A DNA stretch of 51,215 bases from positions 1 to 51,215 of IMG/VR virus record IMGVR_UViG_3300035698_028037; one strand, 5' to 3'. This document shows positions 1-51,215 of this stretch, one piece after another. Source of the stretch: a virus. The position numbers and the translations under genes were made by a program. A model generated the notes under the pieces. It was not told the origin of the DNA and made no database searches. It saw only the letters and a list, made by a program, of their open reading frames with translations. Positions within the stretch are counted from its first letter, which is position 1. Every line of letters begins with the position of its first letter.

Positions 1-127
1 ATCTCAGTGTAGCTATCTAGTTTGTCTATGATAGCCTGTGCTTCTGAGTCAATGTGGCCATCATCATCGATGACCTTGTCCAGATCTATGGCCACATAGT
101 CATCTTCCTCTGAAAATACAAAACCAG
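1..127. repeat. Terminal direct repeat, left copy
   Basis: These 127 bases are identical to 51089-51215. The repeat lies inside the primase-polymerase gene, whose reading frame is continuous across the join, so the unit genome is 51,088 bp. A length of 127 equals a common maximum assembler k-mer, so the repeat is more likely an assembly overlap of a circular contig than a biological terminal repeat. Confidence 0.95.
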
Positions 128-2309: not shown

Positions 2310-4820
2310 TCATACGGACTGGAGGTTACCCCACGATTCACCATATTTGATATCGACTGGGCCGAATGGGACTTTCGTTTCGAAATCAAGATGATTCTCC
2401 ATAGTGTCTTTCATCACCAATGCTGCTTCTCGTAGAGCCTCCTTCTCGATGAGTATCATGATACTATCATGGATCTGAGACCATCTCATGTATCTCATTC
2501 CTAACTCATCGAATCTCTGGCACGTCTTATAATATGCTCTGAATGTCATATCGCTCACGCTACCCTGGATAGGCATATTCACAGCCTGACGTTGAACTTC
2601 TGATCTCTGCTTCTTATCAGCGATCAAGCTAAATCGGCGCTTGCGACCATATAAAGATTGCACCTCATGCGTGAGCAAGACCTGCATCTTCATATTAGAT
2701 ATCCACCACTTGGCTGCTGGCATGATGCTCATCAGTCTATCTATTAGATGTTGAGCCTCCTTTTCAGATACACCTAATTGTGGAGCTAGGCCCTTAGCTC
2801 CTCTTCCGTATATGACTCCGAATACGATTGTCTTAGCTGCTCTACGTTTAATCTCCTTTTCCTCTTTAGATAGAGCATTCCACTCATCATCAGACAATCC
2901 ATATAATTGCTTGGCTACTGCCTCATGGATATCTCGTTCACAAATAGCTTGGATGAGATTATCATCCTTAGCGTAATGGCCAAGCATCCTGACCTCTGCC
3001 TGAGGATAATCCCCATATAGGATGAGGAAGCCAGGATCAGAAATATATATATCCTTTATGTCGTTATCACGAGGAGTGCCATGTAGATTCGGATTCGATG
3101 ATGATTGCCTGCCTGTCACAGTACCATGCAAACGCACGCTCGGCCTTATTCTACCGTCTTCCCACATCGAATCTCGTAGACCCTTGAAATAGGTGCCATA
3201 TTTCTTGCTTAGAAGACGATGCCTGACCATGAGCCTAGGATAATCGTGCTTCTGCGCCAACCAGAACAACATATATGTGCTTGTGGATCGAGAGGACATT
3301 CCTTCGAACGTGTGAACCGATTGTGTATGCCAGTATTCCTGAGCCTCGGGATCCTCTACACTTCGTATTTCGTCTAATAGAGTGATCTTATCTATGGTAT
3401 CTAGAGTGCCTCCTCCCATTTGATCTAATTCGAGATTACCCTCGCTCTTCTCACCATAGAGGTATTCTGCTACCTGTTTGGGGCTATTCGGATTTATGTC
3501 TTCTGCACCAGGGAAACCCCTCATTTGTTCTTCTATATCATTGATCTCCCTTAACCACTTATCGCCATTAGCCTCCAAGCGATCTTTGTCCACGAGCATA
3601 CCTGACATATATTGCTTCGTGAAATGGCCTGCTGCTGGCATCAGGAGATTGGTCATGACACTAATGTCTGTGTCATCCATTTCACTACGGAGATCATCTG
3701 TGAGTCTGCGAGTATAGTCTGCATCCGTAGCATTATAGGTTAGTAATTCCTCACGGTCTATGGATTTGACGTCCTTGATCTTATCTCCCATCTTATATGT
3801 AGGAGACTTATAATATGAGACAGCTAGCCTCTCTAGATCATGAACCCCTTTGCGTTCATCAAGGACATAGGACGCGAGCATAGTATCCCATTGATACTTC
3901 GGGCTTATTCCTTCTTGATATAGCCAGGGGATATCGAACATTCCGTTATGGAATGAGCATGAATGCGCGGACAATATGTCATTGAATCTTATCTTAAACT
4001 CTGGATGATCTCGGATAAGATCCCAGTCGAATGCTACTGCCGTCTCCCCTTTCCATGATAAGGCACATGATACTATATCCTTGCCAAGATATCGAAGGCC
4101 ATCTGTCTCAAGATCCACTGCTATTATACTATCAGAGGGTAGCGTCTCTAGGCGATCTAATAGCGCACTCATTCGTCTCATATTATGAGCAGATATGGTG
4201 ATATAAAAGTCTAATGGAGCTTCTATGGAGACAGGACCACCCTTGTAGATCTCTAAAGCCGTATCGAGATCTGAACATAGATCGGGGAAGCCATCGTTGA
4301 ATCTTAGTATGGCAGAAGGATGAATAGAGGAGATCATCACGCACTCATGCCCTGAGATATCTATGATCTTCGGCTTGCCTCTGGCCTTCCCTATAGCCTC
4401 CGTCTTGCTAGTGATAGCCAGATGGCCGAATTTCCCTAGGGGCATAACGATCTTCGGTTTGATCTTAGCCAGCTCATGAAAAAGCCGCTCACGGCAGCAT
4501 TTTATCTCCTTTGATGATGGATCCCTATTTTTGGGAGGCCTGCACATGACAGAGTTGGTATAGTATATCCTCTCGACTTCTACTCCAACCTCAGTCATAG
4601 TCCGTCTGAGTAGCTGACCTGATCTACCAACAAATGGCTTACCCTTCTTTACCTCATCTGATCCTGGAGCCTCTCCTACTACAGCTATGTAACCTTGGCC
4701 GTCACCAGATGGAGGTACTAAGGGCTCATCTTCAAGAGTGCATTCTGAGCATTTAGCGTATGGTAACTTCACGATGGATTGCTCCTCATGAGAGGGCAGG
4801 TTCGGATTCCATGATAGCAT
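2310..4820 (-). CDS. Fusion: family 4 uracil-DNA glycosylase + family A DNA polymerase
   Basis: This 836-residue replicative polymerase has three modules. Residues 1-200 are a family 4 uracil-DNA glycosylase: paired cysteines in KCSECTL, the motif VVGEAPG...KPFVGRSGQLL, further cysteines in SVMCRPP and IKCCRE (four Fe-S ligands), and motif 2 IHPSA. Residues about 205-390 are a 3'-5' exonuclease: VDLETDG (exo I), FHNGMFD (exo II), YNATDAD (exo III). The rest is the polymerase: motif A GDYPQAEVRM, motif B RRAAKTIVFGVIYG, motif C QIHDSIMIL. All catalytic acids are present. There is no 5'-3' exonuclease domain. A glycosylase-like domain fused to a polymerase is also reported, as I recall, for SPO1-type phages. 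The fusion suggests uracil surveillance at the fork. Confidence 0.93.
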   Translation of the reverse strand: MLSWNPNLPSHEEQSIVKLPYAKCSECTLEDEPLVPPSGDGQGYIAVVGEAPGSDEVKKGKPFVGRSGQLLRRTMTEVGVEVERIYYTNSVMCRPPKNRDPSSKEIKCCRERLFHELAKIKPKIVMPLGKFGHLAITSKTEAIGKARGKPKIIDISGHECVMISSIHPSAILRFNDGFPDLCSDLDTALEIYKGGPVSIEAPLDFYITISAHNMRRMSALLDRLETLPSDSIIAVDLETDGLRYLGKDIVSCALSWKGETAVAFDWDLIRDHPEFKIRFNDILSAHSCSFHNGMFDIPWLYQEGISPKYQWDTMLASYVLDERKGVHDLERLAVSYYKSPTYKMGDKIKDVKSIDREELLTYNATDADYTRRLTDDLRSEMDDTDISVMTNLLMPAAGHFTKQYMSGMLVDKDRLEANGDKWLREINDIEEQMRGFPGAEDINPNSPKQVAEYLYGEKSEGNLELDQMGGGTLDTIDKITLLDEIRSVEDPEAQEYWHTQSVHTFEGMSSRSTSTYMLFWLAQKHDYPRLMVRHRLLSKKYGTYFKGLRDSMWEDGRIRPSVRLHGTVTGRQSSSNPNLHGTPRDNDIKDIYISDPGFLILYGDYPQAEVRMLGHYAKDDNLIQAICERDIHEAVAKQLYGLSDDEWNALSKEEKEIKRRAAKTIVFGVIYGRGAKGLAPQLGVSEKEAQHLIDRLMSIMPAAKWWISNMKMQVLLTHEVQSLYGRKRRFSLIADKKQRSEVQRQAVNMPIQGSVSDMTFRAYYKTCQRFDELGMRYMRWSQIHDSIMILIEKEALREAALVMKDTMENHLDFETKVPFGPVDIKYGESWGNLQSV

Positions 4821-4845: not shown

Positions 4846-5949
4846 TTAGATCATGATAGATCTTTCATTCGCTATCATAGTAACGGGTATGAGCGTATAT
4901 CTGTTTATCATTTGTGCTATCCTAGATACGGCCATCTCATTCCAATATATGAATTCATATATCGGAATGATCTTCCGAGACATTTCATCTTGAGCTGGAA
5001 TAGATCCATGAGGATCTCCCTTATATCCTGTGCATATGGCTAATTCATTGAGGCATTGAAGCGCATCCACCTTACATAGAGCTATCTCTGTGATACCTGA
5101 GACTCTAATGGCATAGCCTAGCGCAGGTAGATCGAGCCAGCCTATCCGTCTAGGCCTTTTGGTATTGGTGCCATATTCGTTACCCTGATCTCTGATAAGA
5201 CCTCCGGTCGCTTCCTCGATCTCTGTAGGGAGCGCCCCAGCCCCTACCCTGGTGATATATGGCTTGACCACGCCAATGATCTTCCTTACCATCTTAGGAG
5301 AGACTCCAAGGCTATGACAAGCTGCTGCGGCAGTACATGCTGACGATGTGACGAACGGATATCCCCCATGATCAATGTCTAGCATAATGCCGTGAGCCCC
5401 CTCTACCAGACAGAAACTATGATTATGCAAGGAGGTATCACAGATATTAGCCTTACGACGTATGTTAGGATAGGCACTGAGATTTACATCGCATAGTCGG
5501 AAATTGCTCCTGGAGTATTTGTCCGCATACGCAGGCCCATTCCCACTCAATGTCGTCCCTATTGGGTTCTCTCGCTCTTCCTCTTCAGAAACATCTTGAT
5601 CTCTGTGGGCTTGCGTCTTTATATGACATCGACCGTCGATATGGAGAGTCCATTCCTTAGGTTTGTCATAAAGCTTGATCGCATCCTCTACTCTCTCTAT
5701 TTCTCTATCCAATCTGGTTAGGTCTATCATGCACCCTCTAGCTATCACACAGTGCATGCCATGCATTGATCCTATAGGCACCTGATTGAATGCAAACTTG
5801 TCTCCATTTTTGAACATCACTGTATGACCTGCATTGTCACTACCGTTGACTCTAGCGCAGGAATCATATATGCCTGTCGAGCATAGGTAATCTACGATGC
5901 GTCCCTTACCTTCATCTCCGAATTGTGCTCCGAGTACTATGTCGAACAT
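4846..5949 (-). CDS. Adenylosuccinate synthetase family protein (PurA/PurZ-like)
   Basis: This 367-residue GTP-dependent ligase family member joins aspartate to a 6-oxopurine nucleotide. The GTP loop GAQFGDEGKGR keeps the catalytic Asp (D12), and NAGHT keeps the catalytic His (H42). Also visible are IGTTLSGNGPAY, MLDIDHGGYPFVTSS, TRVGAGALPTEI, GNEYGTNTKRPRRIGWLD and the base-recognition motif CKVD. It is about 60 residues shorter than bacterial PurA. The hairpin before NAGHT reads NGSD instead of the usual GGHN/GGP-type sequence. Phage PurZ enzymes making 2-aminoadenine DNA are homologues; the phiVC8-type, as I recall, replaces the catalytic Asp by Ser, which is not the case here. Substrate (IMP or dGMP) is therefore open. 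GGGGTGA precedes the ATG. Confidence 0.85.
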   Translation of the reverse strand: MFDIVLGAQFGDEGKGRIVDYLCSTGIYDSCARVNGSDNAGHTVMFKNGDKFAFNQVPIGSMHGMHCVIARGCMIDLTRLDREIERVEDAIKLYDKPKEWTLHIDGRCHIKTQAHRDQDVSEEEERENPIGTTLSGNGPAYADKYSRSNFRLCDVNLSAYPNIRRKANICDTSLHNHSFCLVEGAHGIMLDIDHGGYPFVTSSACTAAAACHSLGVSPKMVRKIIGVVKPYITRVGAGALPTEIEEATGGLIRDQGNEYGTNTKRPRRIGWLDLPALGYAIRVSGITEIALCKVDALQCLNELAICTGYKGDPHGSIPAQDEMSRKIIPIYEFIYWNEMAVSRIAQMINRYTLIPVTMIANERSIMI

Positions 5950-9739: not shown

Positions 9740-10300
9740 CTACCTTTCTCCCCTCCGCATAAGGCTGAGACATTCCTGCCTTGCTGCTGGAGAATCTTTG
9801 AATATACCCCTAACGGCAGAGGTGATAGTAGACGAACCATCAGCCTTGGCACCTCGGAAGGAGATACACGCATGCTGAGCCTCAATCATAACACAGCATC
9901 CGTAGGGTTCAATATGCTCCATAAGAGCATCAGCTACATCACGAGTTATCCTCTCCTGTATCTGGAACCCTCTACTAGCAGCGTGAATCAATCTGGCCAA
10001 CTTGCTGATACCTAAAAGCTTCTTCCTGGGTATGTATGCTATGTGAGCCCTGCCCCAGAATGGAAGGAGATGATGCTCACAATATGATGAGAAGAGAATA
10101 TCTCTGACCATCACCATCTCATCATATTTTTCCTCATCGAATACTCGATATAGTTCTGGATCGGAAGGGGTGCATTGCTCTATGAAGGAATCTGCCACTC
10201 TGGTGGGTGTGTCCTTCAGACCCTCTCTTGTGATATCTTGTTCCAGGGCCAGAAGGATCTCAGTGACGGCATTAGCTATCCTTTGCCTATCCAATATCAC
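9740..10300 (-). CDS. folE: GTP cyclohydrolase I
   Basis: This 186-residue type IA enzyme converts GTP to dihydroneopterin triphosphate, the first step to 7-deazaguanines. It shows the zinc and catalytic motif FSSYCEHHLLPFWG (C74, H76, H77), the core GISKLARL, QIQERIT, and the zinc Cys/His segment EAQHACISFRGAKADGS. Length and motifs are those of an intact enzyme. Its ATG overlaps the stop of queE (4-base overlap), and the queD-like gene starts 7 bases downstream, so the three are translated as a coupled block. Confidence 0.95.
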   Translation of the reverse strand: MILDRQRIANAVTEILLALEQDITREGLKDTPTRVADSFIEQCTPSDPELYRVFDEEKYDEMVMVRDILFSSYCEHHLLPFWGRAHIAYIPRKKLLGISKLARLIHAASRGFQIQERITRDVADALMEHIEPYGCCVMIEAQHACISFRGAKADGSSTITSAVRGIFKDSPAARQECLSLMRRGER

Positions 10301-10968
10301 ACTCCTCTCTTATTGCCCCAAATGACCTTATGTAGTTGGATGCTCAAGCGGATGTCTCTGTTGATGCAGAATCCAGCTACTCTCTCTAGCCATATCCGAG
10401 GAGACGGCATAACTGGGCTCACGATCACATTCTGATATAGGCTTAGGAAGTTAATCCAGGAGACTGCCTCATTCAGATCTTCTTCATCTGCCACGACGAA
10501 CTTGATCTGATCACACGACCTACCCTTCATCGGCCTGGTCCAGGCTCTTATCGTGCTACGGAAACTCTCATTCCCTGAGGAAGGTAGCTTCACATCAATG
10601 ACCCAGCTATCTACCAAAGGGATGAGCTCATTACCAAAAGGCAGTTTGAGAAATGCCCAGGAAGGAGGATATATGGATCCATTACTCTCGATCTCTATGA
10701 AATGATGCTTATGGAGCCTCCTGACAAGAAGTTCCAATTCATCTTGTTGGACTAGAGGCTCACCTCCTGTGATACATATCCATTTCTTAGACGGATTGAT
10801 ATCCGTTATCGGAATATCTTGAGTATCGTCATCAACCTGAGCATAGGCTGTATCACACCATTGACAGGGAGGATCCATATTGCAACCTGCTAGGCGGATG
10901 AATGACATCGGGATTCCAGCATGAATGCCTTCGCCCTGTATGCTATCGAAGGTTTCTATGATCTTCAT
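10297..10968 (-). CDS. queE: 7-carboxy-7-deazaguanine synthase (radical SAM)
   Basis: This 223-residue radical SAM enzyme rearranges carboxy-tetrahydropterin (CPH4) to CDG. It shows FDSIQGEGIHAG, a cysteine cluster GCNMDPPCQWCDT (C29, C35, C38) and ITGGEPLVQ. The spacing C-x5-C-x2-C is shorter than the long spacing of the best-studied QueE and should be noted. I chose the ATG at 10968 because GGAGG lies 5 bases before it; an in-frame ATG at 10980 would add four residues. It overlaps the end of queD by 26 bases. Confidence 0.92.
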   Translation of the reverse strand: MKIIETFDSIQGEGIHAGIPMSFIRLAGCNMDPPCQWCDTAYAQVDDDTQDIPITDINPSKKWICITGGEPLVQQDELELLVRRLHKHHFIEIESNGSIYPPSWAFLKLPFGNELIPLVDSWVIDVKLPSSGNESFRSTIRAWTRPMKGRSCDQIKFVVADEEDLNEAVSWINFLSLYQNVIVSPVMPSPRIWLERVAGFCINRDIRLSIQLHKVIWGNKRGV

Positions 10969-11335
10969 CATTGCCTCCATAATATTTCACGCAGCACTCT
11001 GGGCTTTCCCATACTGTGATCCTAGCGAGTGTGACAGATGGAGGGAGGTGGTTTATCATATCTTCGAATATTCTCCGAGCTAGCCACTCTGCGGTAACAT
11101 TAGCCTCATGGAGAGTTTCATTCAGGACATAATGATCGTATTTCTTATTGAGATAGTCCTTCAGTATCTCCTTGATCTCAGCGAAGTCCACGAGCATATT
11201 ACGCGAGTCAAGGGTATCTCCCTTCAATACCACCTCTACTTCCCAACGATGGCCATGCATGCGATTACATTTACCTTCGTAATCAGCGATGAAGTGCGCA
11301 GCGTCGATATGAGTCTTGACCTGCAATCTGAACAT
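10943..11335 (-). CDS. queD: 6-carboxy-tetrahydropterin synthase
   Basis: This 130-residue enzyme converts dihydroneopterin triphosphate to CPH4. Zinc histidines are H14 (DAAHFI) and H27/H29 in CNRMHGHRWEVEV, with the catalytic C23 present. MLVDFAEIK, YDHYVLN, and the C-terminal ITVWESPECCVKY (catalytic Glu) complete the family pattern. TAGGAGG precedes the start. Together with folE and queE this gives a full route from GTP to CDG. QueC, which would make preQ0, was searched for by eye on both strands and not found. Confidence 0.93.
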   Translation of the reverse strand: MFRLQVKTHIDAAHFIADYEGKCNRMHGHRWEVEVVLKGDTLDSRNMLVDFAEIKEILKDYLNKKYDHYVLNETLHEANVTAEWLARRIFEDMINHLPPSVTLARITVWESPECCVKYYGGNDEDHRNLR

Positions 11336-11536: not shown

Positions 11537-13077
11537 TATCTCCTCCTCCCTATATGGTAGGCATATGGACAGTTGCCTTGATCATATATTACGATAGAGT
11601 TCTTAGCTCTGGTGACCGCAGTATAGAACAGCCTATGGATTCTATCTGAGTTATATGTCATGTCAGCATGTCCTGCTGATGATAGATCTGGAAAAACATG
11701 GACGACTTCAGATTCTCCGCCTTTCACAGAATGGATCGTGCCAACGATGATCTTTGGTCTCGTCTTTTCTTCAAGTGCTTTTCCGAAGTATTCCCATGAT
11801 CCATGAGGCACCTTACGCCTCAATTGTAACAGAGCCTGGAACCTACGTGACAATAGAGTTTCGGCAGTACGCTCCGCTAGGAATTGTAAGATCTCATTAT
11901 GATGTATTTCCCTATCAAGGTTATCATTGCAATAGGAACGTAAACCATCCTCAGATGAGAATACGGACTTGTCTATGATGCTCATCCAATTGAGTATCAC
12001 TGAGCCAGTCCATATGCCAGTTAGATAACCTTTGGCTGCTCTAGCAGCATCGGTAGCTAACGGATTCCAATCTAGATTTGAAGTCCGATATGGATTATGA
12101 AATGGAATGCCGTTCATCTTGAGATTACGAATGATGCCGTTTAGCATATACGAGCATGATGTTAAGATCATATGCTCTCGGCCATCATTTATATTCGGGA
12201 TCAGAGCCTCTCTGGAATCACTTATGCTGAAATTAGAGGACTTTACTTCTCCATCAGCATCTGTTGGCATATATGGTTTGGATCTACGCTTAGATATTCT
12301 TGATAGAATATCTTCAGCTACTCTATGAATTGTCCGAGGTACGCGATAAGATTGAGACAAGATCATATTCCTATTATCAGGGATATCTGACCTAAGGAAC
12401 TCCTCGGGAATTGAACCACTCCACTCATATAAGCTCTGATCGTCATCACCAACTAAGATTAGATATCTAACGTTCCATGATCTAATGACTTTTAGTTGGA
12501 GAGGAGTGTGATCTTGAGCCTCGTCTATGTATATGACCGCTTGCGCTGGGAGACATTTTGTTTCTATGGCAGCCTCTAACCATGATGTATAGTCCATCAA
12601 TCCATTCTCAAGACACCATCGTAACCACACAGAATACCATTCTTTGAGGATTGGCCTCCATTCGTCTATAGGGATCAATTGCTGTCTAGCTATCTGAACT
12701 TTATCATAGATGGTGAGCCCAGAGGCAAGGGCAATCTCTCCTCGTGTGATATCGAACTTATGTATCGGGAGGCTTTTCTCACCACTATATTTGGGATGAT
12801 CCTTAATGAAGTCTCTCATGTATGATTCGGCTGGAGGAGGAGCTTGCAAAGCACGCTTGCATCTGGCATGGAGGGTTGTCATATTCTCAGAGTCTATAGG
12901 GATATCTCTACTGACAACCTCTTCGACAGCTGCTTTGGTTAGCGAACATATTGATACCTGATCGGAGCCATATTTCTTTATGGATAGCTCAGCATGTTCA
13001 GCTATCCATGTGGTCTTTCCAGTCCCTGGAGGCCCCCATATACGATATTCTTCTGTCTGATTAGGAGTGATACTCAT
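11536..13077 (-). CDS. UvrD-like superfamily 1 helicase, second copy type
   Basis: This 513-residue helicase has Walker A GPPGTGKTT close to the N-terminus (near residue 15), motif II IYIDEAQDHT, motif III LVGDDDQSLYEWSGS, motif IV-like LSQSYRVP, V-like GTIHSVKGGES and VI LFYTAVTRAKNS. It differs throughout from the 722-2233 helicase, so this is not a recent duplication. No Shine-Dalgarno is visible before the ATG; instead a 14-bp perfect hairpin (13085-13127) ends 7 bases before the start, which may control its expression. Confidence 0.92.
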   Translation of the reverse strand: MSITPNQTEEYRIWGPPGTGKTTWIAEHAELSIKKYGSDQVSICSLTKAAVEEVVSRDIPIDSENMTTLHARCKRALQAPPPAESYMRDFIKDHPKYSGEKSLPIHKFDITRGEIALASGLTIYDKVQIARQQLIPIDEWRPILKEWYSVWLRWCLENGLMDYTSWLEAAIETKCLPAQAVIYIDEAQDHTPLQLKVIRSWNVRYLILVGDDDQSLYEWSGSIPEEFLRSDIPDNRNMILSQSYRVPRTIHRVAEDILSRISKRRSKPYMPTDADGEVKSSNFSISDSREALIPNINDGREHMILTSCSYMLNGIIRNLKMNGIPFHNPYRTSNLDWNPLATDAARAAKGYLTGIWTGSVILNWMSIIDKSVFSSEDGLRSYCNDNLDREIHHNEILQFLAERTAETLLSRRFQALLQLRRKVPHGSWEYFGKALEEKTRPKIIVGTIHSVKGGESEVVHVFPDLSSAGHADMTYNSDRIHRLFYTAVTRAKNSIVIYDQGNCPYAYHIGRRR

Positions 13078-13084
13078 ATAACAT

Positions 13085-13127
13085 CAGCGAGGCTGAGGGA
13101 GATCTTCTAAACACCTCAGCCTCGCTG
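13085..13127 (-). promoter_or_regulatory. Long GC-rich hairpin before the helicase gene
   Basis: CAGCGAGGCTGAGG at 13085-13098 and its exact complement at 13114-13127 form a 14-bp stem with a 15-base loop. A smaller stem (AGGCTG/CAGCCT, 13136-13152) lies next to it. Reading leftward the long stem ends 7 bases before the ATG of the helicase, and no T-run follows. It could be an attenuator, a processing or stability element, or a block to initiation. Confidence 0.8.
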
Positions 13128-13499: not shown

Positions 13500-13949
13500 C
13501 TAGAATGGGATATCGTCCCCTCCGTCTTGGGTGACTCTGACTGAGGCCTTAGCTGAACTGCCTCCAGTTCCAGCATCTGGGAGGACATTGGAGACTGACG
13601 CGCCCTCCTTCTCCTCACCAGAATCCCGATCTCGATACTTACGCTTGACCACGATGAGTAGCGCAGTCTTGCCATGAAGCTTCTTGGTATCGACATCGAC
13701 ATCGCCATCGAACCCAAAGGCCTTGAGATGGGTCTTGAGGCCTCCAAGAGCGTGATCTAGTAGGGAAGTATAGCTACTGATCATCCTACCTCCACTCTCT
13801 CCACCGACGACTTCCCACTTCCATACCAACATCGGGTTCCCATCGTGGCTGGTATCGTTGTTGCATTCCACGAGCTTCCCTCGATGCTTACCAGGCTCGG
13901 GCGCTACGAAATCCGGTATCTCGTCCATGTTTACTCTGATTCGCGCCAT
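13500..13949 (-). CDS. Single-strand-binding-like protein (DUF669-like)
   Basis: This 149-residue protein has a predicted OB-like beta-rich body (MLVWKWEVVGGESGGR, TALLIVVKRKYRDRD), a low-complexity linker and the C-terminal tip GGDDIPF. An acidic tail ending DDIPF is the signature of bacterial SSB proteins, which recruit partner enzymes through it. It therefore most likely coats ssDNA during replication or recombination. Its stop is followed by the DUF5679 gene, and its ATG overlaps the stop of the FAD oxidoreductase gene. Confidence 0.75.
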   Translation of the reverse strand: MARIRVNMDEIPDFVAPEPGKHRGKLVECNNDTSHDGNPMLVWKWEVVGGESGGRMISSYTSLLDHALGGLKTHLKAFGFDGDVDVDTKKLHGKTALLIVVKRKYRDRDSGEEKEGASVSNVLPDAGTGGSSAKASVRVTQDGGDDIPF

Positions 13950-15286
13950 TATGACACCTCCTTTCTCACATCTTCAGCGGCTACCATGCCACTGAGGGCA
14001 GCGGCTACGAAGCTATCGAGATAACCACTTCCACTGCCAATCACGTACAGGTTTCTGATGTCCTTGCACCTCCATTCATTTGTGATATTCATCCTCTTAC
14101 CATAGTACTTCATTTCTGGACCGAATATAATAGCTTTGTCCGAGATGAAATTTGGAACTAGCTTATCCATCTCTAAGATGAATCCTCTGAACGCATGTAA
14201 TAGAGGATCAGGTAAAAGGTCAGAGATACGAAGGAGGTTACTCTGGCTGTTAGTCATATAAGAATCATCGAAGGGCATATTCCTACCTAGGAAGTCTCCT
14301 AGAGGTTGAAATGCTGAGCCACCTGCCATATATGTGATATGATGTGCCAGGTGCCTAACTAGTTCCTGAGGAGGCAAGAGCAATCCCTCTGGCACTTTTA
14401 TCATGATCGCCATGTTAGACGAGCGGGATTTCCGAAAGTCGCTTAGATACGAATGTCCGTTCACATTGACTATATCTAGATCTGTATGCCTTTCGTTGAT
14501 CACATATCCATTCTGGTTACAACAGAAGGATCGCACTACGAATCCTAATGAGGATTCATATATGATTTTGTAATCGTAGAACTGCTTGTGGAGGCCAGAT
14601 AGCACTTCTGCACTCGTCTCGAATCTCAGGCCGAATCCAGCTGGTCCAGAGCTAAGAGGAGAATTGATAGATCTCATTAGGTTCTCAATCCACGGGATGC
14701 CCTGGAGCCCAGCAGCTATTATCGTAATATCTGCTTCTTTGAGATCTCCGTCTACTATTACTCCTCTGCATTCCTTGGTAGCCACATTGACATGAGGAGA
14801 AGCGATACTCCTATATAAGATCTTAACCCCATTGGCCATGAGATTATTCGTGAATCCTCTGACGAATCTTCTTATTCCATCCGATCCCACGTGCCTAAGA
14901 GGATAGCTTTCGAATCTCAGGAAATGTGAGTCTCTGAATGCCTTCGGAGGCTCGGGCAAAGGATCGTACCAGACTCCTGCGCCAGCGAATCTCACTATGG
15001 CCCTATCGATCTTATGGAGCTTACGTTCCTCTTCTGATCTGAACACAGATTCCATTTGGGTGCCACGAGTGAGAGAATACGTGTTCTTACCATCAGATAA
15101 GCCTCCAGCACCTCCCTCGCCTTCCAATATCTGGCAGATCTTACATGAGTCACAACCGGTCTCAGGACATACTCGATCCTCAATCGGATATCCCGTCTCG
15201 TATATTGTGACATCAGCATGGCCCGAGAGTGCATCAGCACAGAAGAGACCTGCTGGACCAGATCCTACGATCGCAACTTTTTTCAT
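13949..15286 (-). CDS. FAD-dependent dehydrogenase (COG2509-like)
   Basis: This 445-residue flavoprotein has the N-terminal Rossmann FAD motif VAIVGSGPAGLFCADAL, then a cysteine segment CPETGCDSCKICQILEG and EGGAGGLSDGKNTYS. That order is typical of the uncharacterised FAD-dependent dehydrogenases of COG2509. The C-terminus has the second FAD-contact motif YVIGSGSGYLDSFVAAALSG. The substrate is unknown. Its place inside the replication and deazaguanine operon makes a role in base modification or redox support possible, but nothing proves it. The leader is unusual: a structured RNA (15300-15433) ends next to the GAGGAG ribosome site. Confidence 0.85.
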   Translation of the reverse strand: MKKVAIVGSGPAGLFCADALSGHADVTIYETGYPIEDRVCPETGCDSCKICQILEGEGGAGGLSDGKNTYSLTRGTQMESVFRSEEERKLHKIDRAIVRFAGAGVWYDPLPEPPKAFRDSHFLRFESYPLRHVGSDGIRRFVRGFTNNLMANGVKILYRSIASPHVNVATKECRGVIVDGDLKEADITIIAAGLQGIPWIENLMRSINSPLSSGPAGFGLRFETSAEVLSGLHKQFYDYKIIYESSLGFVVRSFCCNQNGYVINERHTDLDIVNVNGHSYLSDFRKSRSSNMAIMIKVPEGLLLPPQELVRHLAHHITYMAGGSAFQPLGDFLGRNMPFDDSYMTNSQSNLLRISDLLPDPLLHAFRGFILEMDKLVPNFISDKAIIFGPEMKYYGKRMNITNEWRCKDIRNLYVIGSGSGYLDSFVAAALSGMVAAEDVRKEVS

Positions 15287-15455
15287 AACTGTTCTCCTCT
15301 CTGAAGGGAGATAGGACTACATTGTGGAGTTTACGTCGGTGTCTCATCCTGCGACTTTGACACCACTACCCATGAGGCCTAACAGCTTGGAGTCGGCTGG
15401 TTTGCTGGGATTTTCGCCCCATCTCCCTTCAGATAGGAGAAACCTAGATTTATTA
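15287..15455 (-). ncRNA. Structured leader RNA of the FAD dehydrogenase gene (riboswitch-like)
   Basis: This 169-base gap has no gene. TCTGAAGGGAGAT at 15300-15312 is exactly complementary to 15421-15433, giving a 13-bp closing helix around a 108-base core. Read on the minus strand, the core shows further stems: GGG..CCC around GCGAAAAU, CAGC/GCUG, and GGUGUC/GACACC. The 3' strand of the closing helix runs directly into GAGGAG, the ribosome site, 7 bases before the ATG. This architecture is that of a translation-controlling cis-regulatory RNA. No known riboswitch class could be assigned by eye. Confidence 0.6.
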
Positions 15456-16259
15456 TTATGATCCCATCTCCACTATTTTCTGGATGGTTGGTTCCCAGAT
15501 CTGTCGCAATCCGCTGCCTCTGTTCTTGGCCAGATATCTGATACCATTCTCATTGATATAGGAATCGGTTAGGAGATGTCTCCTATTGACGACTTTTATA
15601 TTGCCCTCTCCATCATCTACTTGCACAGGAATGTTTGATAATCTGGCCAGTACATCTACGTAGGCACCACTCTCCGATGACAACTGACCAGAGAACATAG
15701 GGGCGATCAGATCGCGTTTCTCATCTATCTTCTCTAGGCAGGTCATGAAGACATGAATACGATCCCCACCCTCTTTCGTATAGGCCAACTCTTTGAATGC
15801 GCGAATGAACTTGCGCATTTGATCTCCAGTCTTGAGCCAATCCTGCCTGGTTGGTACTACTGTACCTCCCAGATCCGTATAATCACTCTGACCATCCTTG
15901 ATATCTCTCAGTATCGTCCCTAGACTATATTTCTTCTGAAGTTCTGTGAGACTATCAATTCCGAGTGCCTTATAATGATGGTTATCATGTCGGAAGAAGT
16001 CATATATGTCCTGTATCTCTCTCCATGAGAGAGGCCTTACTATATCGACATTCTTGCCTTTCAGAGTTTTAGTACCTCCCTCGACATCCATCAATAGGAA
16101 TGGTGTCGTCGGTGGATAGTCTATGGCAGTACCAAGGAGATAAGTCTTACCAGACCCTGTTTCTCCATATATGATCGTATTGATGAACTCCGTATCCTCC
16201 GGTCGCTCAACAGCGAATGGGAGATCTGGGGATTCACTCTGTACCGGTCGCTTTGGCAT
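15456..16259 (-). CDS. RecA-fold AAA ATPase (AAA_24/Sak4-like recombination protein)
   Basis: This 267-residue protein starts at the ATG at 16259, supported by GGAGGG 6 bases upstream (an earlier ATG at 16307 overlaps the lipoprotein gene). It has Walker A YGETGSGKTYLLG, Walker B-like LLMDVEGG, and ALGIDSLTEL. These match the phage nucleotide-binding AAA_24 group, which includes Sak4-type single-strand annealing or recombinase proteins. It lies next to the SSB-like and nuclease genes, in keeping with a recombination module. Confidence 0.82.
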   Translation of the reverse strand: MPKRPVQSESPDLPFAVERPEDTEFINTIIYGETGSGKTYLLGTAIDYPPTTPFLLMDVEGGTKTLKGKNVDIVRPLSWREIQDIYDFFRHDNHHYKALGIDSLTELQKKYSLGTILRDIKDGQSDYTDLGGTVVPTRQDWLKTGDQMRKFIRAFKELAYTKEGGDRIHVFMTCLEKIDEKRDLIAPMFSGQLSSESGAYVDVLARLSNIPVQVDDGEGNIKVVNRRHLLTDSYINENGIRYLAKNRGSGLRQIWEPTIQKIVEMGS

Positions 16260-16269
16260 CCTTACCCTC

Positions 16270-16704
16270 CTATTTTCTGTCTTGTCCTGCCTTCTTACAT
16301 AGGTCATTCATGATCACCAAGAGTTTAGCCTCATCCTCAGTAGGAGGATCACTCATCATGCTCTCTAGCATATTCATACCTGGGCCGCAAACTAGACCTG
16401 CTCCTTCTCTTTCGATACGAGCCTGCTCTGTAGCACGTATTTCTGCTATAGTATTGGTTTCCCCAAAGATCGTTATGAGTTCGTTATCAGCAGGTATCAA
16501 GACACCCGTAGTCGTCTGCTCTTGTGTCGATGTCGTAGGTGATATCTGCTCTTGTATTGATATCGTAGGGGATGCTTGTGTCGTAATAGAAGGAGATACC
16601 TGCTCTTGTATCGTAGTAGAAGGAGATGCTTGTGTCGCAGTAGAAGAGGAGCATCCGACTGACAGTAAGGTAACTAAGATAATAGCGATTAGTATCCTTT
16701 TCAT
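16270..16704 (-). CDS. Repeat-bearing lipoprotein
   Basis: The 144-residue protein has a short lipoprotein-type signal (MKRILIAIILVTLLSVGCSS) with a slightly atypical lipobox SVGC. A Thr/Ser/Gln-rich linker follows, built of about two and a half 18-residue repeats (TQASPS..IQEQVSPSI type) at roughly 16500-16640. A short C-terminal domain with two more cysteines completes it. It would be anchored outside the membrane. Phage lipoproteins often block superinfection or serve lysis; either is possible here. CTAGGAGGT precedes the ATG. It interrupts an otherwise DNA-metabolism operon. Confidence 0.8.
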   Translation of the reverse strand: MKRILIAIILVTLLSVGCSSSTATQASPSTTIQEQVSPSITTQASPTISIQEQISPTTSTQEQTTTGVLIPADNELITIFGETNTIAEIRATEQARIEREGAGLVCGPGMNMLESMMSDPPTEDEAKLLVIMNDLCKKAGQDRK

Positions 16705-19873: not shown

Positions 19874-19912
19874 GACCGATATCCCGCCTCCCTTTACCAT
19901 TTCCTCATATCA

Positions 19913-19942
19913 AAAATTCATTATATTGATATAATGAATTTT
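19913..19942. repeat. AT-rich palindrome, site 1
   Basis: The arms AAAATTCATTATAT (19913-19926) and its exact complement (19929-19942) surround a 2-base centre: 14-bp perfect dyad. The same sequence unit recurs as an inverted pair at 23311-23353. Both sites lie about 30 bases upstream of an ATGTGATA motif and a rightward gene, which suggests an operator for a phage regulator. Confidence 0.85.
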
Positions 19943-19970
19943 CGCTAGGGGGATGTACAAATGTTATTAG

Positions 19971-22743: not shown

Positions 22744-23323
22744 GCATGTCAGGTATCATCTCCCAGAGGAGATAGACCCTGGGAGAGTTTGGTTCATCTC
22801 AGATCCTCACTTTGATCACGACAATATTCTCAAATATTGCTCCAGACCTTTCCGAGACATATCAGAGATGAATGCAGTCATCAAGAGGAACTGGAATAAG
22901 GCGATAAGGAAAGACGATCTAGTATTCTTCCTAGGGGATATGGCCTTCGGTAGGGGATCTCGCGCACCTCGATGGTGGGTATCCCAACTCAACGGGAAGA
23001 AGGTCTACATTAAAGGGTCTCACGATCATGGTATACGACCTACGTCCAACGTACCTTCGGTGATTACCATAGCGAACTCAATAGTCCTGGTGACAGATTA
23101 CGGAGAGGCTCTCCTGATACATAATCCTCATCAGGATATGGTTGCAGATTGGGAAGGATGGGTCATACACGGCCACGTTCATGATAGGAAGCCTCTGATA
23201 GATAGAGAGAGAATGATGATTAATGTGAGCGTAGAGGTCATAGACTATAAGCCTCGTAGTCTCAAAGAGATACGGAAGTCGATAGGGGATTCGATGAGGG
23301 AGGAACAGTCAATATCAATATAA
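22730..23323 (+). CDS. Calcineurin-like metallophosphoesterase
   Basis: This 197-residue enzyme has the metal ligands in order: FISDPHFDHDNI, VFFLGDMAFG, KGSHDHGI (a variant of GNHD), LIHNPHQ and VIHGHVHDR. NVSVEVIDYKP follows, as in the small phage phosphoesterases. It hydrolyses a phosphodiester or phosphomonoester of unknown identity. The stop codon lies inside the left arm of the AT-rich inverted repeat at 23311-23353. Confidence 0.88.
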   Translation: MHKIRHVRYHLPEEIDPGRVWFISDPHFDHDNILKYCSRPFRDISEMNAVIKRNWNKAIRKDDLVFFLGDMAFGRGSRAPRWWVSQLNGKKVYIKGSHDHGIRPTSNVPSVITIANSIVLVTDYGEALLIHNPHQDMVADWEGWVIHGHVHDRKPLIDRERMMINVSVEVIDYKPRSLKEIRKSIGDSMREEQSISI

Positions 23324-23353
23324 TGAATTTCCGAAATTCATTATATCAATATT
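23311..23353. repeat. AT-rich inverted repeat, site 2
   Basis: Arms of 20 bases (23311-23330 and 23334-23353) around CCG pair with two mismatches. Each arm contains the AAATTCATTATAT unit of the palindrome at 19913-19942. It overlaps the end of the phosphoesterase gene and lies 30 bases before the ATGTGATA motif at 23383. It probably binds the same factor as site 1. Confidence 0.85.
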
Positions 23354-49972: not shown

Positions 49973-51215
49973 GGTTGATCGTCAGATTCAATGAATCCTA
50001 TAGGAGATACCCATAAGCTAATTTGCTTACGACGACCTTCTTCGAATGCACTTATCTTGCGCTTAGAGAACCCCAGGTATATTAGATCATGAGCTACCGT
50101 CTTTACGCTCACTCCACTCAATCCTGCATGGACTCTGACATATCTTGTGAGATCTGACAATCTTATATATAACCTGCCTCTCTTATCAGATGCCATGCTG
50201 TTCAATCCCAATCCGAATATCTTCATGATATCTTTATCTTCTTCTATCAAGGGTAATGAGATCCTAGTGCTGATGTAGTCGTTCAGCCATGTCTGAGCAG
50301 AATCTTCTCTAGTTACAGTATCAATCCTCTCTATAAGAGGCATAAGCTCCCTGGTGATTATCTTCCATCTCTTAAACGCACTATCTCCTAGGTTGAATCC
50401 CATGTCATATAGTTTGGCAGTAGCCTTCTTCGGAGATAATAATGACTCTGCGGTTCCCATAGGTACTCGTACGATAGTCCCATCGTCCTTTTGGCCTTCG
50501 ATCTCATATTCAGAGTCCTGGATGCCATACTGAAACACACGTTTCACTATGAATGGCAATAGACTAAGGATCCCACCTGAATCAGATCCTCTCATTTTGC
50601 CGATAGTCCTCGGGATATAATCCGGTCTCAGGGATTTCTCTATGTCATCTTTACTCCCATGCTTATATCTGAATCTTATTATCAGATCTGCTATTTCCTG
50701 ATCAGACCACTCGCTAGCTAATGTAGCCAGCCTCCAATCATAATCTGACATGCTTATCAGGTCACTATTTTCATGATTCCATGTATCTCTGAACTCTTGG
50801 TCACTCTTATAGAGGGTTTTGAACATATTCTCAGGAGGTTTAGCATCACTATTTAGGATGATATCTCCCGTGGGCTCTGGGCTAGGACAATTGTTATCTC
50901 CGAATACGCTTGAGCAGAGCCATTCCAAGCCTTCTTGATTATCTTTGATGCCGTCCCTATTCTGCCATAGTTCTCCAGTGAGAGCGAAGTATCGGCTCTT
51001 ATCATAGATCTCAACATTGCCCTTACGACATCTCTCACTAGGTTTCTTACCTCGAATGATGATATGGATACCATGATTACTCTTGGATATCTCAGTGTAG
51101 CTATCTAGTTTGTCTATGATAGCCTGTGCTTCTGAGTCAATGTGGCCATCATCATCGATGACCTTGTCCAGATCTATGGCCACATAGTCATCTTCCTCTG
51201 AAAATACAAAACCAG
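49969..51215 (-). CDS. Primase-polymerase, main part (gene continues at 305-1)
   Basis: Together with the 305-1 segment this forms a 474-residue protein. Visible here: AIDLDKVIDDDG (metal ligands), SYTEISKSNHGIHIIIRGK and VEIYDKSRYFALTGE, the core of NrS-1-like primase-polymerases. Then DWRLATLASEWSDQEIADLI, a PriCT-like helical segment. The C-terminal third lacks Walker motifs and looks like a winged-helix region (GVSVKTVAHDLIYLGFSKRK). No helicase domain is attached, so a separate helicase must serve the fork. It likely primes phage DNA replication. The stop shares TTAA (49969-49972) with the fibre gene stop. Confidence 0.88.
   Translation of the reverse strand, partial: GFVFSEEDDYVAIDLDKVIDDDGHIDSEAQAIIDKLDSYTEISKSNHGIHIIIRGKKPSERCRKGNVEIYDKSRYFALTGELWQNRDGIKDNQEGLEWLCSSVFGDNNCPSPEPTGDIILNSDAKPPENMFKTLYKSDQEFRDTWNHENSDLISMSDYDWRLATLASEWSDQEIADLIIRFRYKHGSKDDIEKSLRPDYIPRTIGKMRGSDSGGILSLLPFIVKRVFQYGIQDSEYEIEGQKDDGTIVRVPMGTAESLLSPKKATAKLYDMGFNLGDSAFKRWKIITRELMPLIERIDTVTREDSAQTWLNDYISTRISLPLIEEDKDIMKIFGLGLNSMASDKRGRLYIRLSDLTRYVRVHAGLSGVSVKTVAHDLIYLGFSKRKISAFEEGRRKQISLWVSPIGFIESDDQP
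51089..51215. repeat. Terminal direct repeat, right copy
   Basis: Identical to 1-127. It closes the circle in the middle of the primase-polymerase gene. Confidence 0.95.

What the first reader, a model, noticed from the sequence alone, without database searches (positions are those of the whole stretch)
15300..15433. Riboswitch-like RNA closed by a 13-bp helix before a FAD dehydrogenase gene
A 13-bp perfect inverted repeat encloses a 108-base core with several internal stems and a GCGAAAAU loop. The 3' strand of the closing helix abuts the GAGGAG ribosome site. The layout is that of a ligand- or protein-controlled translation switch, very rare in phages. Some segments are faintly like cobalamin (GC.GA.UCC..CUGU) or FMN (GGGGCGAAAAUCCC, GGAUGAGA) elements, but the order does not match either.
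Basis: partly seen in the sequence, partly recalled or inferred. Interest (0 to 1): 0.72.

Follow-up and report, generated by a model that had tools for sequence, protein, structure and literature searches.

The report
Hairpin hiding a phage gene's start
[quoted passage not shown] this probably dampens or times its translation, but nothing shows that it is a riboswitch.

Summary
The inverted repeat is real and lies on the minus strand, before the gene at 15286..13949. It is longer than reported: 24-nt arms (15292-15315 and 15418-15441), 7 + 13 Watson-Crick pairs around one A.G mismatch, plus five inner pairs with two G.U. It is the longest close inverted repeat in the window, and nothing like it arose in 12 shuffles. 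The ribosome site does not merely abut the helix: AGGAG (15294-15298) sits inside the outer 7 pairs. The 108-nt core, however, folds no better than shuffles (z +0.3), and Rfam gives nothing credible. In relatives (36-46% identical FAD protein, same gene order) the upstream Sak4-like gene overlaps the FAD gene by 4-11 nt or is separated by 17 nt or less; one has an unrelated 190-nt spacer. No relative carries the element, and no second copy was found. So it is a lineage-specific insert that decouples two genes and hides the second one's ribosome site. Best reading: a cis-acting inhibitory hairpin like those at T4 genes e, soc, 49 and I-TevI, relieved by transcripts that start, or are cut, inside the helix (modelled, not shown). 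A ligand riboswitch is unsupported but not excluded, because no close homologue exists to test covariation. A functionless insert is the main rival.

The parts
15292..15441 (-). whole element: 150-nt insert bounded by the inverted repeat, between the Sak4-like and FAD-protein genes
15435..15441 (-). outer 5' arm UUCUCCU (anti-Shine-Dalgarno)
   Evidence: pairs with 15292-15298 in the predicted fold
15421..15433 (-). 13-nt 5' arm UCUGAAGGGAGAU
   Evidence: perfect complement of 15300-15312
15416..15420 (-). inner 5' extension GGGGC, pairs with GUCCU through two G.U; could instead form a small local hairpin with UCCC
   Evidence: the G.U pairs exist on the gene strand only
15318..15415 (-). rest of the core with predicted small stems (e.g. 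GGUGUC 15359-15364 with GACACC 15338-15343); no stability beyond chance
15313..15317 (-). inner 3' extension GUCCU
15300..15312 (-). 13-nt 3' arm AUCUCCCUUCAGA
15292..15298 (-). outer 3' arm AGGAGAA; holds the Shine-Dalgarno AGGAG (15294-15298), 7 nt before the ATG
13949..15286 (-). downstream gene: FAD-dependent protein, C-terminal domain PF21688, 445 aa
   Evidence: relatives at 36-46% identity
15456..16307 (-). upstream gene: Sak4-like ssDNA-annealing ATPase (PF13479, phrog_124); its TAA is followed by two further in-frame TAA codons

Best explanation
The element is a lineage-specific insert whose terminal inverted repeat folds, in the mRNA of the operon, into a hairpin that sequesters the Shine-Dalgarno of the FAD-protein gene. 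In transcripts that read through from the Sak4-like gene the FAD gene is therefore poorly translated and no longer coupled to Sak4 translation. Translation is relieved when the 5' end of the mRNA falls inside the helix, either because a promoter lies just upstream of or within the 5' arm, or because a double-strand-specific nuclease cuts the long duplex. Shown: the repeat, the position of the SD inside it, the lack of the element in relatives, the overlap or near-contact of the two genes there. Inferred from energy models: strong inhibition and its relief by 5' truncation. Not shown: that the RNA is made, folds so, or is regulated at all.
For: Long repeat far beyond chance. The AGGAG lies in the outer helix. 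The FAD start is the second costliest of 40 gene starts to unfold, 25.8 kcal/mol. In the model, moving the transcript start from 15441 to 15434-15430 lowers the cost of freeing the SD from 11.1 to about 0.3 kcal/mol and that of the ribosome footprint from 27.2 to 11.6-16.8; a 5' end at 15426 gives 4.6, and cuts in the 3' arm at 15308-15304 give 5.3-2.6. The gene strand folds better than the opposite strand, -66.0 (181 nt) against -60.2 (161 nt) kcal/mol, with two G.U pairs that exist only there. In relatives the two genes overlap by 4-11 nt or are separated by at most 17 nt, so the insert changes how the second gene is translated. The design is known: T4 genes e, soc, 49 and I-TevI have the SD or AUG in a helix, and late transcripts of gene e that lack the 5' strand are well translated (PMC3014915).
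Against: No homologue with compensatory changes exists in what could be searched, so selection on the fold is unproven. No sigma-70-like promoter was found on the gene strand here; other promoter types were not covered. The 108-nt core is an unusually large loop for a hairpin of this kind. Opening the SD alone costs only about 8-9 kcal/mol, which slows rather than forbids initiation.
Confidence: 0.42

Rival explanations
1. A functionless or parasitic insert: a short element with terminal inverted repeats (MITE-like), or an inverted duplication by template switching, that landed between two genes. The hairpin and the hidden SD are by-products with little regulatory role.
For: The insert coincides almost exactly with the repeat ends (14 nt after the Sak4 stop, 5 nt before the FAD ATG). 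It is absent from relatives. The core folds like random sequence and matches no family.
Against: No second copy in the genome and no paired-arm copy in viral contigs: the exact-arm pattern gave none, and six single-arm hits lack a partner arm. Nothing convincing in phages or plasmids. No target-site duplication is evident at the ends. The right end supplies a good SD at proper spacing, which an arbitrary insert would not.
Confidence: 0.25
2. A processing site: a double-strand-specific nuclease (RNase III in a bacterial host) cuts the helix of about 20 bp, separating the Sak4 and FAD messages and freeing the FAD ribosome site.
For: Length and near-perfection of the duplex suit RNase III (own knowledge). 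Cuts within the 3' arm free the SD in the model. Relatives carry strong intercistronic hairpins elsewhere in the operon, and this phage has a 14-bp one at 13085-13127.
Against: No cleavage data; the host is unknown. The terminase is nearest to Methanobacterium phage psiM2 while the portal is nearest to Geobacillus phage GBK2, and most archaea lack RNase III (own knowledge).
Confidence: 0.12
3. A ligand- or protein-bound leader RNA (riboswitch or operator) whose core senses a metabolite or a phage protein and opens or closes the helix.
For: Closing helix, over 100 nt of core, SD in the helix, metabolic FAD gene in a cluster with folE, queE-like and queD genes.
Against: No Rfam match even at E<=10. 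Core not more stable than shuffles. Not found with a structure model in 15 related records or 22 further loci. The closing helix is too strong for easy reversible switching.
Confidence: 0.09
4. A split ribosome site, as at T4 genes 38 and 25: the hairpin shortens the path, so that the weak UAGGU before the helix, or a ribosome ending at the Sak4 stop, lies about 5 or 20 nt from the FAD ATG and coupling survives the insert.
For: The helix base is 5 nt before the ATG, UAGGU directly precedes it, and the Sak4 stop is 14 nt before the helix. Coupling is the layout in relatives. Known precedents (PMC3014915).
Against: The upstream SD is weak whereas a good AGGAG is buried in the helix. A 150-nt structure is much larger than the known cases.
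Confidence: 0.07

Closest known systems
Inhibitory hairpins at T4 translation initiation regions (genes e, soc, 49, I-TevI; Aeh1 mobE)
   Same: SD held in an intramolecular helix; for e the upstream strand is absent from transcripts that start at late promoters in that region (PMC3014915).
   Different: Here the helix is long and the loop about 100 nt; no late promoter was identified; unrelated phage and gene; no functional data.
T4 gene 25 and 38 split ribosome sites
   Same: A hairpin between an upstream SD-like sequence and the start codon.
   Different: The strong SD is inside the helix, not upstream of it; the structure is about 150 nt.
RNase III sites in phage leaders and operons (e.g. 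phage T7, lambda N leader; own knowledge)
   Same: Long duplex between genes; a cut in the arm would free the ribosome site.
   Different: No cleavage evidence, host unknown, large internal core.
Cobalamin (RF00174) and FMN (RF00050) riboswitches
   Same: Only a leader RNA upstream of an enzyme gene, and short look-alike segments.
   Different: Neither family is reported even at E<=10.

Membership tests
SD-sequestering inhibitory hairpin (T4 gene e kind) | SD and/or start codon inside a stable helix | tested here: met
   AGGAG 15294-15298 lies in the 3' strand that pairs with 15435-15441; footprint cost 25.8 kcal/mol; prediction only
SD-sequestering inhibitory hairpin (T4 gene e kind) | Alternative transcripts lacking the upstream strand, from a promoter in or next to it | tested here: inconclusive
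   No sigma-70-like site on the gene strand; other promoter types not covered; truncation frees the SD only in the model
SD-sequestering inhibitory hairpin (T4 gene e kind) | Measured reduction of translation by the helix | not testable with these tools
   needs a reporter assay
Cobalamin riboswitch RF00174 / FMN riboswitch RF00050 / any Rfam riboswitch | Match to the family's covariance model | tested here: not met
   no hit at gathering score; at E<=10 only a chance lncRNA line
Riboswitch in general | Conserved, covarying aptamer core | tested here: inconclusive
   core z +0.3; no homologue found for covariation
Riboswitch in general | Ligand binding changes the structure | not testable with these tools
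   needs in-line probing
MITE-like insertion | Insert bounded by terminal inverted repeats, absent from the empty site in relatives | tested here: met
   gene junction overlaps or is 17 nt or less in 10 of 11 relatives
MITE-like insertion | Multiple copies sharing the terminal repeats | tested here: not met
   none in own genome, none in viral contigs, nothing convincing in phages or plasmids; host genomes not searched
MITE-like insertion | Target-site duplication | tested here: not met
   flanks ...CTAGGT / CAGTTA... show no direct repeat at the ends (read by eye)
Intrinsic terminator | Short-loop GC-rich hairpin followed by a run of T | tested here: not met
   none found at 15200-15700

The most novel reading that the evidence does not exclude
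An unrecognised leader RNA, found so far in one phage, whose core binds a flavin, pterin or 7-deazaguanine intermediate, or a phage protein, and controls a FAD enzyme that belongs to a phage base-modification gene cluster.
Probability: 0.06. Interest if true: 0.65.

Novelty: new member of a known kind. Interest (0 to 1): 0.25.

Why it matters
If the hairpin works as proposed, it is another case of a phage placing one operon gene under separate translational timing by an inserted, self-complementary leader, here between genes that overlap in relatives. That is modest but useful for understanding how phages rewire conserved gene blocks. A ligand-controlled version would be much more notable, but no evidence here favours it.

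Tried and rejected
Rfam at gathering score and at E<=10: no family. tRNA/tmRNA: none. Intrinsic terminator: none; promoter: nothing above chance. Exact core 17-mer in viral contigs: 7 contigs; the stretches around the matches show no closing repeat like this one, and several lie in long open frames or in a different repeat. Exact-arm pair pattern: no hit. Single-arm pattern: 6 contigs, none with a partner arm. blastn of the element against phages and plasmids: only 20-34 nt chance matches at E of about 2-6. Close relatives by FAD or Sak4 protein alone: none. Terminase relatives L085-L088 are fragments in which neither the FAD nor the Sak4 gene was found. A structure model built from the single sequence found nothing else. 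ORFs in the insert (an 18-codon frame read by eye, 37 aa minus, 45 aa plus) have no usable SD or look incidental. Host assignment was left open: terminase nearest to Methanobacterium phage psiM2, portal nearest to Geobacillus phage GBK2.

Full report
What is there. The gene downstream is on the minus strand, 15286..13949 (445 aa; C-terminal domain PF21688 of FAD-dependent proteins). Upstream on the same strand is a Sak4-like ATPase gene, 16307..15456 (PF13479; phrog_124). Between them lie 169 nt. Read on the minus strand, that spacer is: 14 nt after the Sak4 TAA (with two more in-frame TAA codons), then 150 nt bounded by an inverted repeat (15441..15292), then CAGTT and the ATG. The arms go further: UUCUCCU / AGGAGAA outside one A.G mismatch, and GGGGC / GUCCU inside (two G.U pairs). 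The repeat finder gives 24-nt arms, 92% complementary, the longest close inverted repeat in the window. None of this quality appeared in 12 dinucleotide shuffles of the whole window.

Structure. The gene strand folds at -66.0 kcal/mol (z -5.6, no shuffle as good), the opposite strand at -60.2 (z -3.4; slightly shorter stretch). The excess comes only from the closing helix: the core alone scores z +0.3, or -0.3 for its inner 98 nt. So the 'several internal stems' are what random sequence of this composition would give. AGGAG, 7 nt before the ATG, lies inside the outer helix rather than beside it.

Known families. Rfam gives nothing at gathering score in the whole window. In the region at E<=10 it gives only a lncRNA line at 11.7 bits, where 90 are needed. 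Cobalamin and FMN riboswitches are therefore not met. There is no tRNA and no intrinsic terminator.

Relatives. A protein alignment search found 11 viral contigs of the same clade (L011-L020, L039) and two contigs in MAGs (L101, L102). Within the viral set the FAD protein is 36-46% identical over its length. The surrounding block is the same in most of them: SNF2 helicase, PD-(D/E)XK nuclease, Sak4, FAD protein, DUF669, UvrD-like helicase, and in many queD, queE-like and folE. At the homologous junction, in 11 relatives with both genes, the Sak4 stop overlaps the FAD start by 4 to 11 nt in 6 and is 7 to 17 nt away in 4; one (L020) has a 190-nt spacer of its own with unrelated sequence (for L101 and L102 the FAD start was not refined, so their gap of 8 nt is approximate). 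Searches of the relatives' whole records by sequence and with a single-sequence structure model found no copy. Nor did the model in 22 further loci, or blastn in phages and plasmids, or pattern scans in viral contigs. The element is known from this genome alone. The tools warn that records very near the window's own may be left out.

Mechanism. Of 40 gene starts in the window, this one has the second highest cost of clearing the ribosome footprint (25.8 kcal/mol); the only higher one is the UvrD-like gene at 13077, next to a 14-bp perfect hairpin. Freeing just the SD costs about 8-9 kcal/mol. Shortening the transcript from the 5' side until the outer arm is lost makes the SD nearly free; a cut within the 3' arm does much the same. 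This is the behaviour documented for T4 gene e, where long early transcripts form the inhibitory structure and late transcripts lacking its 5' strand are well translated; soc, 49 and I-TevI have the same kind of helix (PMC3014915). I take this as the most likely way of working: a cis hairpin that suppresses the FAD gene in read-through transcripts and uncouples it from Sak4, with relief by an internal transcript start or by nuclease cleavage. The hairpin and the hidden SD are read from sequence and energy models; transcription, inhibition and relief are inferred. No promoter was identified, and the host, hence its nucleases and promoters, is unknown.

Rivals. A neutral or MITE-like insert explains the ends, the lack in relatives and the featureless core, but there is no second copy and no target duplication. 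A processing site and a split ribosome site are possible variants. A ligand or protein switch has no positive evidence beyond the layout.

Limits. With no homologue of the element, covariation could not be tested at all; that is the main reason for moderate confidence.

Noticed in passing
window 9740-11335 (-) with 13949-15286 (-); L011-L020, L039, L101, L102: A conserved phage gene block SNF2 - PD-(D/E)XK - Sak4 - FAD protein (PF21688) - DUF669 - UvrD - queD - queE-like - folE recurs in about a dozen contigs; the FAD protein may take part in a 7-deazaguanine or other base-modification pathway.
   Followed up: partly
window 4846-5949 (-) and 2310-4820 (-): A phage adenylosuccinate-synthetase homologue (matches purA and, more weakly, PurZ models) next to a family A DNA polymerase with an N-terminal uracil-DNA-glycosylase-like domain; whether it is a PurZ was not tested further.
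   Followed up: no
window 13085-13127: A 14-bp perfect hairpin with a 15-nt loop directly before the UvrD-like gene start at 13077, the costliest start in the window to unfold.
   Followed up: partly
window 19902-19953 and 23311-23353: Two palindromes sharing AAATTCATTATAT / ATATAATGAATTT, possibly operators or promoters.
   Followed up: no
L012:4080-4330, L020:3885-4130, L017:1530-1640: Strong intercistronic hairpins, terminator-like in L017, occur near the SNF2 and PD-(D/E)XK genes in relatives.
   Followed up: partly
window 52-85 and 51140-51173: The same sequence near both ends of the record, suggesting a terminal repeat and a near-complete genome.
   Followed up: no
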